From the NCBI RefSeq assembly GCF_021134715.1, contig NC_060028.1, positions 2,192,501-2,256,500 of the forward strand: a stretch of 64,000 bases of DNA, given 5' to 3'. Origin of the DNA: Daphnia pulex (taxonomy: Eukaryota > Arthropoda > Branchiopoda > Diplostraca > Daphniidae). Shown here piece by piece: positions 29,993 through 32,163 of the stretch. The notes under the pieces were generated by a model. The model made no database searches and had not been told where the DNA came from. It saw only the letters and a list, made by a program, of their open reading frames with translations. How positions within the stretch are numbered: position 1 is the first letter of the stretch; the number at the start of each line of letters is the position of its first letter. The translations under genes were made by a program, and so were the position numbers.

Positions 29993-32163
29993 TCACCATG
30001 GATCAAGAATCAATCCTCCATAATAGGCGGTAATAGTTTTGACTTTATTGTTCAAGATGTTTTGTTCGATTTCAGCTTCACCATCAGTGGCGATTCCAAT
30101 CAACTGTAATAATATTGCAAGATATTCAAACATGAAATGAGATTATTACATTTTAATTGAAATTTTTTTCTTACTAACTTGATCTACATTAGTGTTCCTT
30201 GGAAGAAAGTAAGCCAGGTTTGACGTAATCTTTTGTGCTGCTTCAAATATGTCGATTCCGTTAGGTTGCATATCTTCCAGACAAAATTGGGGCGCTGAGA
30301 GATATTTTGGTCCACCCCACTAAATATTAAAGATATAAAAACTATGTAAGCAAATCTGAAGTTTATTAATAATACAGTCATTAATTGTCAACGGTATAAT
30401 AGAAATATAGAAAAATAAAATGACACGTTGATTGATTACCGGAGGCGAAAGAAAGACTACATCTGCCTTCAGACTAGGAGCCAATTGAAAAAAATCTCCG
30501 ACGATGAATTCAATTCGATCGGCTACACCGTATACCGATGCATTATGCCTAGCTAGCTCTATTTTTGAAGGATCGATATCTATCGCAATAACTAACTCAA
30601 AAAAACGAAAACAAAATATGAATAAAAAGAATAAGTATCAGATCTCACTAACTATCAAATTGAAATAAAAATACCTCTTTCACACTTGAATGCAAACTGG
30701 ATGGAATTTCCTCCGGCTCCACAAAACGCATCAACTATCAAATCGCAGCGGCATCTTTCTGCAATGTGTCGAGCAATGCGTTCTGGCGTTACCGAAAACC
30801 ACGAATCTAGAGAGGGGAGAAAGGGTTTTGGATATCGGCGAGAAATTCTTTCCAACAAAAGCTCTAAGAAGTACCGTAATCCAATCGAATGCCTTTGTCA
30901 AATTTTGAAAACAGTTTATAGCGTTGAGCCCAGTACTTTTTCAACTCCTTGTTTTCAGGTATTTCAGGCAGCTGCAGGACCTTCTGGGTTTCATCATCTT
31001 GTTGCTTTTTAAGACCAGACTTTAAGTACTTTGCAATTTGTTTACCCGCAACAGCGTTGTAGGGTTCAAGAATCAATTCTCCATAATAGGCGGTAATAGT
31101 TTTGACTTTATTATTCAAGATGTTTGGTTCGATTTCAGCTACACCATCAGTGGCGAGTCCAACCAGCTGTAATAAATATTGCAAGATATTAAATTGTGAA
31201 ATGAGATTTATTACATTTTAATTGAACTTTTGTTCTTACTTGATCTACATTAGTGTTCCTTGGAAGAAAGTAAGCCAGGTTTGACGTAATCTTTTGTGCT
31301 GCTTCAAATATGTCGATTCCATTAGGTTGCATATCTTCCAAACACAATTGGGGGGTTGAGAGGTATTTTGGTCCATCCCACTAATATTAAATAAATAAAA
31401 AATATGTAAGCAAATGTAAAGTTCATTAACAATATAGTCATACATACATCGTCATACATTTTCAATGGTATAATATAAATATAGAAAAAAAATACCACGT
31501 TAATTTATTACCGGAGGCGAGAGAAAGACTACATCTGCCTTCAGACTAGGAGCCAATTGAATAAAATCTCCGACGATGAATTCAATTCGATCGGCTACAC
31601 CGTATACCGATGCATTATGCCTAGCTAGCTCTATTTTTGAAGGATCGATATCGATCGCAATGACTAACTCAAAAAACAATTTAAAAAAACAAAACAAACA
31701 GACAATAAAAAACAAATAATGAATAAGTATTCAGATCTTGCTTACAGTCAAATTGTAATAAAAATACCTCTTTCACACTTGAATGCAAACTGGATGGAAT
31801 TTCCTCCGGCTCCACAAAACGCATCAACTATCAAGTCGCAGCGGCATCTTTCTGCGATGTGTCGAGCAGTTCGTTCTGGCGTTACCGAAAACCACGAATC
31901 TAGAGGGAGGAAAAAGGTTTTAAATAGATATAAGCGAGAAACTCTTTCCAGCCATTAAGCTCTATAGCAATTACCGTAATCCAATTGAATGCCCTTGTCA
32001 AACTTTGAAAACAATTTATAGCATTGAGCCCAGTACTTTTTCATCTCCTTTTTTTCAAGTATTTGAGGCAGCTGCTGGACATTCTGGGTGTCTTCATCGT
32101 CGAGTTTATTAAGGCCAGACTTCACATACTGTGCAATTTGTTCATCCACAACAGCATTGTAAC
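29993..32163 (-). CDS. TGS1: Tandem-fused trimethylguanosine synthase (two TGS1 methyltransferase domains)
   Basis: Exons (5' to 3'): 31975-~32163, 31768-31899, 31512-31663, 31240-31380, 30875-31166, 30675-30806, 30440-30591, 30179-30319, 29993-30103. TGS1 converts the m7G cap of snRNA/snoRNA to 2,2,7-trimethylguanosine using SAM. Each half has the family landmarks: [27 protein letters not shown]-binding [23 protein letters not shown], then VVFLSPPW and [12 protein letters not shown]. Exon 30875-31166 is chimeric: it encodes the C-terminal end of the first domain (to LILEP) and runs straight into the N-terminal block of the second. The period is about 1,093 bp and introns are also similar, so this is a genomic tandem duplication in which all junctions keep frame. 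The first half has W-D-G-P where the second has the usual W-G-G-P. I find no ATG in frame at the 5' end; a first exon is missing or unseen. The gene ends in a proper stop after LILDPW. Confidence 0.82.

What the first reader, a model, noticed from the sequence alone, without database searches (positions are those of the whole stretch)
29993..32163. Two TGS1 cap-hypermethylase domains fused in one gene by tandem duplication
Seen: two sets of four homologous exons about 1,093 bp apart, with similar introns. One chimeric exon (30875-31166) ends the first domain and starts the second with no stop or intergenic gap. All splice phases fit a single transcript. Known: TGS1 normally has one catalytic domain. 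Inference: the locus could make a double-headed trimethylguanosine synthase, or it may be a decaying duplicate lacking its 5' exon.
Basis: partly seen in the sequence, partly recalled or inferred. Interest (0 to 1): 0.75.

Follow-up and report, generated by a model that had tools for sequence, protein, structure and literature searches.

The report
Fused double TGS1 cap-methylase gene, Daphnia
A water flea carries, besides its normal cap-trimethylating enzyme gene, a shorter copy whose catalytic part was doubled and fused into one open frame, with one half well preserved and the other probably dead, which offers a natural test of whether this enzyme works in pairs.

Summary
On the minus strand nine exons (32167-29993, all GT/AG) join into 481 open codons with two TGS1 catalytic modules, fused in frame inside exon 30875-31166. 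Contig lengths identify Daphnia pulex; a single-domain TGS1 lies on C8, and no third locus was found. A D. pulicaria gene model (P0001, 488 aa) has the same architecture, 4 of 488 residues different, and points to a seven-codon first exon at 32263-32243. This argues strongly against an assembly artefact. Module B keeps all 42 positions invariant in 114 homologues, and its catalytic part is constrained (omega 0.08, p 0.0016 against neutrality). Module A breaks two (R to C; G to D in SPPWGGP), and its catalytic part is not distinguishable from neutral (omega 0.46, p 0.15); the difference between the two rates is itself not significant (p 0.068). Best reading: a young single-chain tandem of a degenerate and an active TGS1 domain, not a double-headed enzyme. 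Expression and activity are untested.

The parts
32243..32263 (-). Likely 5' coding mini-exon, MFGHRSM, ATG start, donor GTAAAA; outside the stretch homologous to the parent gene
   Evidence: sequence; same seven-codon start with one residue changed in D. pulicaria P0001; rests on that one gene model
31975..32167 (-). Module A, block 1 (193 nt): pre-catalytic segment and [10 protein letters not shown]
   Evidence: same length as the parent exon on C8
31768..31899 (-). Module A, block 2 (132 nt): motif X and motif I
31512..31663 (-). Module A, block 3 (152 nt): motifs II, III, SPP of motif IV
   Evidence: PF09445 hit
31240..31380 (-). Module A, block 4 (141 nt): starts WDGP where 114 of 114 homologues have WGG
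30875..31166 (-). Chimeric exon (292 nt): last block of module A, fusion junction near 31062/31063, linker, first block of module B
30675..30806 (-). Module B, block 2 (132 nt)
30440..30591 (-). Module B, block 3 (152 nt)
30179..30319 (-). Module B, block 4 (141 nt), intact WGGP; donor GTTAGT with a frame-shifting GTAAGA donor 4 nt downstream
29993..30103 (-). Module B, last block (111 nt) with TGA stop
29971..29976 (-). AATAAA starting 17 nt past the stop, a possible poly(A) signal; the parent has AATAAA at a similar place, but the same scan finds ten other AATAAA/ATTAAA between 32300 and 29300, so it is weak evidence
29263..32233 (-). Extent of homology to the parent TGS1 locus on C8 (L007 3450-5140), with the internal tandem duplication; the 3' end is defined by short weak matches

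Best explanation
A DNA-level (introns kept) partial copy of the D. pulex TGS1 gene, holding the five catalytic-domain exons and the 3' flank but not the N-terminal exon, moved to chromosome C12. It gained a new seven-codon first exon. An internal tandem duplication of about 1.1 kb joined the stop-codon end of one copy to the start of the first catalytic exon of the next, in frame. The product is one chain of about 488 residues: module A, a linker of about 41 residues, module B. I think module B is an active cap guanine-N2 methyltransferase and module A a degenerate one, kept as a structural or RNA-holding domain or tolerated as ballast. Shown: gene anatomy, parent, the same architecture in a D. 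pulicaria record, unequal conservation of catalytic residues. Inferred: order and mechanism of the rearrangements, expression, folding of A, activity of B, any role of A.
For: 481 open codons, canonical splice sites, exon lengths equal to the parent's except the chimeric exon and the stop shifted by one codon. Parent on C8. D. pulicaria protein model with the same architecture, 99% identical, 4 of 488 residues different. Tree of 17 rows: modules A of both species together, modules B together, A+B (98/92) beside the single-domain parent, D. sinensis outside. Exons carry 0 indels against 11 intron gap events between A and B (p about 4e-6 if indels fell alike on both; 0.003 if only 5 events are counted). 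Pairwise dN/dS 0.20 (P-A), 0.17 (P-B), 0.37 (A-B), with dS close to intron divergence. Branch model, catalytic part: module B 0.08, neutrality rejected, p 0.0016. Invariant residues broken: parent 0, A 2, B 0 of 42.
Against: No transcript or protein evidence was available. Over its whole length module B is not distinguishable from neutral (omega 0.45, p 0.16), while module A is (0.42, p 0.034); and a model with equal omega for A and B is not rejected (p 0.91 over all codons, 0.068 over the catalytic part), so the unequal fate rests mainly on which residues changed. B carries a 4-nt insertion at one donor that offers a competing splice site of similar score; its use would shift the frame, change the last 7 residues and shorten the protein by 29. 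D. pulicaria module B has K to Q at a position that is K in 107 of 114 homologues. The mini-exon rests on one gene model. Without the N-terminus and the polylysine stretch of the parent the protein may not reach the nucleolus (inference).
Confidence: 0.5

Rival explanations
1. Decaying pseudogene: a partial duplicate that happens to keep its frame and is on its way out; module A has already lost its site and module B has begun to drift.
For: N-terminal exon missing; module A omega 0.46 in the catalytic part, not different from 1 (p 0.15); module B over all codons not different from 1 (p 0.16); two invariant residues lost in A; donor insertion in B.
Against: 0 exon indels against 11 intron gap events; simulated chance of no stop in one neutral module 0.0745 at 0.09 changes per site; catalytic part of module B constrained, p 0.0016, and A and B together not neutral, p 0.006 over all codons; frame intact in the record of a second species.
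Confidence: 0.25
2. Double-headed enzyme: both modules active, each adding one of the two methyl groups to the same cap.
For: 40 of the 42 invariant residues are kept in module A, including SPPW. Boon et al. 2015 (PMC4466884, passages) speculate that self-associated TGS1 units transfer the two methyl groups in succession.
Against: Module A has R to C and G to D at positions invariant in 114 of 114 homologues, the second next to the cap-stacking tryptophan W766 (PMC3278928, passages).
Confidence: 0.1
3. The locus is used through single-domain transcripts only, for example from an internal start giving module B alone.
For: The clearest selection signal falls on the catalytic part of module B. 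The D. pulicaria record is named isoform X2, which implies another isoform (not seen).
Against: The chimeric exon reads through from one module to the next, and the D. pulicaria model runs through both.
Confidence: 0.1
4. Assembly or stitching artefact.
For: The two copies are alike and adjacent.
Against: Copies differ by 13% overall and by intron indels; a D. pulicaria record shows the same junction with species-specific residues.
Confidence: 0.02

Closest known systems
TGS1 / PIMT, RNA cap guanine-N2 methyltransferase (PF09445)
   Same: Both modules match over the catalytic domain; module B keeps all 42 tested invariant residues.
   Different: Two catalytic modules in one chain; no N-terminal region; module A lacks two invariant residues.
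Self-associating TGS1 of yeast and human (Boon et al. 2015, PMC4466884; abstract, introduction, passages and section 4 seen)
   Same: Brings two TGS1 catalytic domains together.
   Different: There self-association needs the N-terminus, which this gene lacks; here the link is covalent. The authors argue that both partners must be active, which module A probably is not.
Daphnia two-domain haemoglobin (PMC4503718, passages; Dewilde et al. 1999 is cited there, not seen)
   Same: A chain with repeated copies of one domain, in the same genus.
   Different: Unrelated family; there both domains carry haem (recalled).
Gene models with two or more TGS1 matches in other lineages (P0003, P0006, P0013 Arabidopsis; P0009 Spodoptera; P0005 Allomyces)
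   Same: Two or more TGS1 matches in one predicted protein.
   Different: Far relatives in sequence. My reading, not tested, is that they are separate events, merged tandem gene models or assembly faults (P0005 repeats whole blocks).
METTL3-METTL14 (recalled, no call)
   Same: Pairing of an active and an inactive methyltransferase domain, if module A has a role.
   Different: Two genes, different enzyme family; an analogy only.

Membership tests
TGS1 (PF09445) | Profile match over the catalytic domain | tested here: met
   D. pulicaria P0001: 271 bits, two stretches, cut-off 22; window exons of both modules over the cut-off
TGS1 (PF09445) | Motif IV SPPWGG with the cap-stacking tryptophan, module B | tested here: met
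TGS1 (PF09445) | Motif IV SPPWGG, module A | tested here: not met
   SPPWDGP; G in 114 of 114 homologues
TGS1 (PF09445) | Invariant arginine of KYWxxR (human R651 by counting back from motif X), module A | tested here: not met
   C in both Daphnia species; R in 114 of 114 homologues
TGS1 (PF09445) | Methyl transfer to m7G caps | not testable with these tools
   needs recombinant protein
TGS1 (PF09445) | N-terminal region | tested here: not met
   parent has an open 676-nt upstream exon; no homology to it was found above the catalytic exons here
Processed retrogene | Loss of introns | tested here: not met
   all four introns between the copied exons kept in both modules
Pseudogene | Disabled coding frame or neutral evolution | tested here: inconclusive
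   frame intact; catalytic part of B constrained, of A not distinguishable from neutral

The most novel reading that the evidence does not exclude
The fused protein is a working single-chain TGS1 pair in which a catalytically dead module holds the RNA or the second domain in place of the lost N-terminal self-association region, so that one active site does both methylations without release, or is limited to a dimethylguanosine cap (as described for Giardia Tgs2) on a subset of RNAs.
Probability: 0.15. Interest if true: 0.8.

Novelty: new variant of a known kind. Interest (0 to 1): 0.5.

Why it matters
How TGS1 puts two methyl groups on a cap in cells, when the truncated enzyme studied in vitro releases the product after the first, is open; Boon et al. 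(PMC4466884) suggested that paired units act in turn and that both must be active. This gene is a natural covalent pair with one doubtful partner, so recombinant A, B and A-B proteins would bear on that directly. It also shows how a tandem duplication with a breakpoint at a stop codon can yield an in-frame two-domain gene.

Tried and rejected
Retrocopy: rejected, introns kept. Assembly artefact: very unlikely, a D. pulicaria record has the same junction. Missing start: probably resolved by the mini-exon. Captured 5' sequence from elsewhere in the genome: the 1,267 bp upstream gave 15 other matches, all short (141 bases or fewer of the query), none over the mini-exon. Structure prediction: one job; mean pLDDT 64, module B good (85-98 in every 10-residue block from residue 291), module A not modelled (mostly under 50), probably because the single-domain rows aligned to module B, so it says nothing about A; the second job and the fold searches were not used. 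One search used a wrong frame and is not used. One search stopped with an error after listing the window's open segments, which guided the exon search. The bacterial promoter scan has no bearing on an animal gene. The Monecke 2009 structure paper is not held, so residue roles beyond the PMC3278928 passages are not from a source here. Branch tests rest on three sequences and few changes. Donor scores use frequencies that I recalled. I did not compute how many invariant positions a neutral module A would be expected to lose.

Print: no paper describing this gene showed in the listings (2 papers; 7; 0; 6), judged by titles and abstract starts, with passages read of one paper each; the library holds open-licence PMC papers only.

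Odds: unchanged after re-checking; the non-significant A-B rate difference (p 0.068) was added as evidence against.

Full report
What is there. The window lies on contig C12 of a 133.19 Mb, 13-contig genome. Contig C8 has the same length, 14,242,098, as the contig listed for a TGS1 protein named Daphnia pulex, so I take the genome to be D. pulex. On the minus strand, homologous blocks repeat at spacings of 1,060-1,100 bp. The whole tandem match is 86.9% over 1,106 columns. Splicing at canonical sites gives nine exons and 481 open codons ending in TGA. A likely tenth, 5' exon of seven codons at 32263-32243 supplies the ATG; it was found because D. pulicaria protein P0001 starts MFRHRSM, and the window reads MFGHRSM followed by GT, a 75-nt intron and AG.

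The parent. A family search and a protein search of the whole genome find TGS1 exons at two places, this locus and C8 (only the best candidates are scored). The C8 gene has an open 676-nt upstream exon and then exons of 193, 132, 152, 141 and 108 nt, the same lengths as in the window modules apart from the junction and a stop shifted by one codon. I did not resolve the parent's start codon. Homology between the loci runs from about 70 bp above the first catalytic exon to about 550 bp past the stop, weakly at its far end. The copy therefore moved as DNA, with introns and 3' flank and without the N-terminus.

The fusion. In the parent the frame ends CTTGATCCCTAG and the catalytic exon begins GTAGCTTACAAC; the fused exon reads CTTGAACCCTACAACGC. 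Taking the parent as a stand-in for the ancestral copies, the join lies at a shared TA, the first two bases of the stop codon; it removed the stop, the 3' untranslated region and the acceptor and left the frame open. A tree of 17 protein rows (5 Daphnia modules and 12 chosen homologues) puts A and B as sisters (98/92), each with its D. pulicaria counterpart (A 100/99, B 93/83), beside the single-domain parent (94/97), with D. sinensis outside (the root is drawn at the midpoint and one row, P0148, is long). So the fusion probably came after the split from D. sinensis and before that of D. pulex and D. pulicaria.

Is it more than a relic? dS is 0.29 (P-A), 0.26 (P-B) and 0.15 (A-B), close to intron divergence of 0.30, 0.31 and 0.18, while dN is 0.058, 0.044 and 0.056. 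Between A and B there are 11 intron gap events in 339 aligned bases and none in 717 coding bases. In a three-branch codon model, over all codons omega is 0.12 (parent plus stem), 0.42 (A) and 0.45 (B); neutrality is rejected for A alone (p 0.034) and for A and B sharing one omega (p 0.006), not for B alone (p 0.16). Over the catalytic part omega is 0.07, 0.46 and 0.08; neutrality is rejected for B (p 0.0016) and for A and B sharing one omega (p 0.00085), not for A (p 0.15). Equal omega for A and B is not rejected (p 0.91 over all codons; 0.068 over the catalytic part). These rest on few changes.

Asymmetry. Of 120 listed homologues, 6 with more than one domain match were dropped (P0001 among them), leaving 114. 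The listed 120 are the best of 3,259 hits, so they lean to close relatives. Of 198 columns filled in at least 105 rows, 42 are invariant. The parent and module B break none; module A breaks two, R47C (human R651, counting back from motif X as numbered in PMC3278928) and G159D (human G767, next to the cap-stacking W766). Of 27 near-invariant columns the parent breaks one, module A three and module B two; one of these is shared by all three. D. pulicaria shares both module A losses, so they are not sequencing errors in one genome. D. pulicaria module B differs from D. pulex by one residue, K to Q at a position that is K in 107 of 114.

Relatives with the same architecture. A search with the junction region found 45 proteins, of which only P0001 (a cluster of 7 member sequences) covers the whole region; the next covers 65%. 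Gene models with two or more matches from Arabidopsis, Spodoptera and Allomyces look like separate events or merged models; I did not test which.

How it may work. TGS1 methylates N2 of the m7G cap twice, and both products leave the enzyme after the first step (PMC3278928 passages). Boon et al. (PMC4466884; abstract, introduction, passages and section 4 seen) report N-terminal self-association in yeast and human, speculate that paired units act in turn, and take the failure of W178A as a sign that each must be active. The Daphnia gene lacks the N-terminus and links two domains covalently. With module A probably unable to methylate, I favour B as the enzyme and A as a degenerate passenger or scaffold. 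A true double-headed enzyme is possible but less likely.

Limits. No expression data, no DNA from other Daphnia, no usable structure for module A. The gene is already in public annotation for D. pulicaria as an uncharacterized protein; what is added here is its architecture, origin and the unequal state of its halves.

Noticed in passing
28645-29189 and 62266-62789: A repeat of about 545 bp, 89% alike overall and 99% over 290 bases, at two places in the window.
   Followed up: partly
42678-44063: Tandem pair of about 699 bp, 97.6% alike.
   Followed up: no
34481-34818 and 37506-37843: Direct repeat of 338 bp at 99.7% identity flanking about 2.7 kb; might be the terminal repeats of a recent insertion.
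   Followed up: no
16624-17772: Open frame on the plus strand matching CAF17-type folate-binding proteins (PF25455, PF01571).
   Followed up: partly
L007 3400-3460 (C8): Short inverted repeat ACCAAGAGG...CCTCTTGGT, seen by eye, in the parent TGS1 intron at the edge of the copied block; might mark the breakpoint.
   Followed up: no
PMC10538257 and PMC9332697 (papers): TGS1 and a cap-binding protein are both among the genes of the pea aphid region linked to reproductive mode (passages); TGS1 is called a controller of apospory in Paspalum (abstract start in the listing). Relevance to Daphnia, which also has asexual lineages, is unknown.
   Followed up: no
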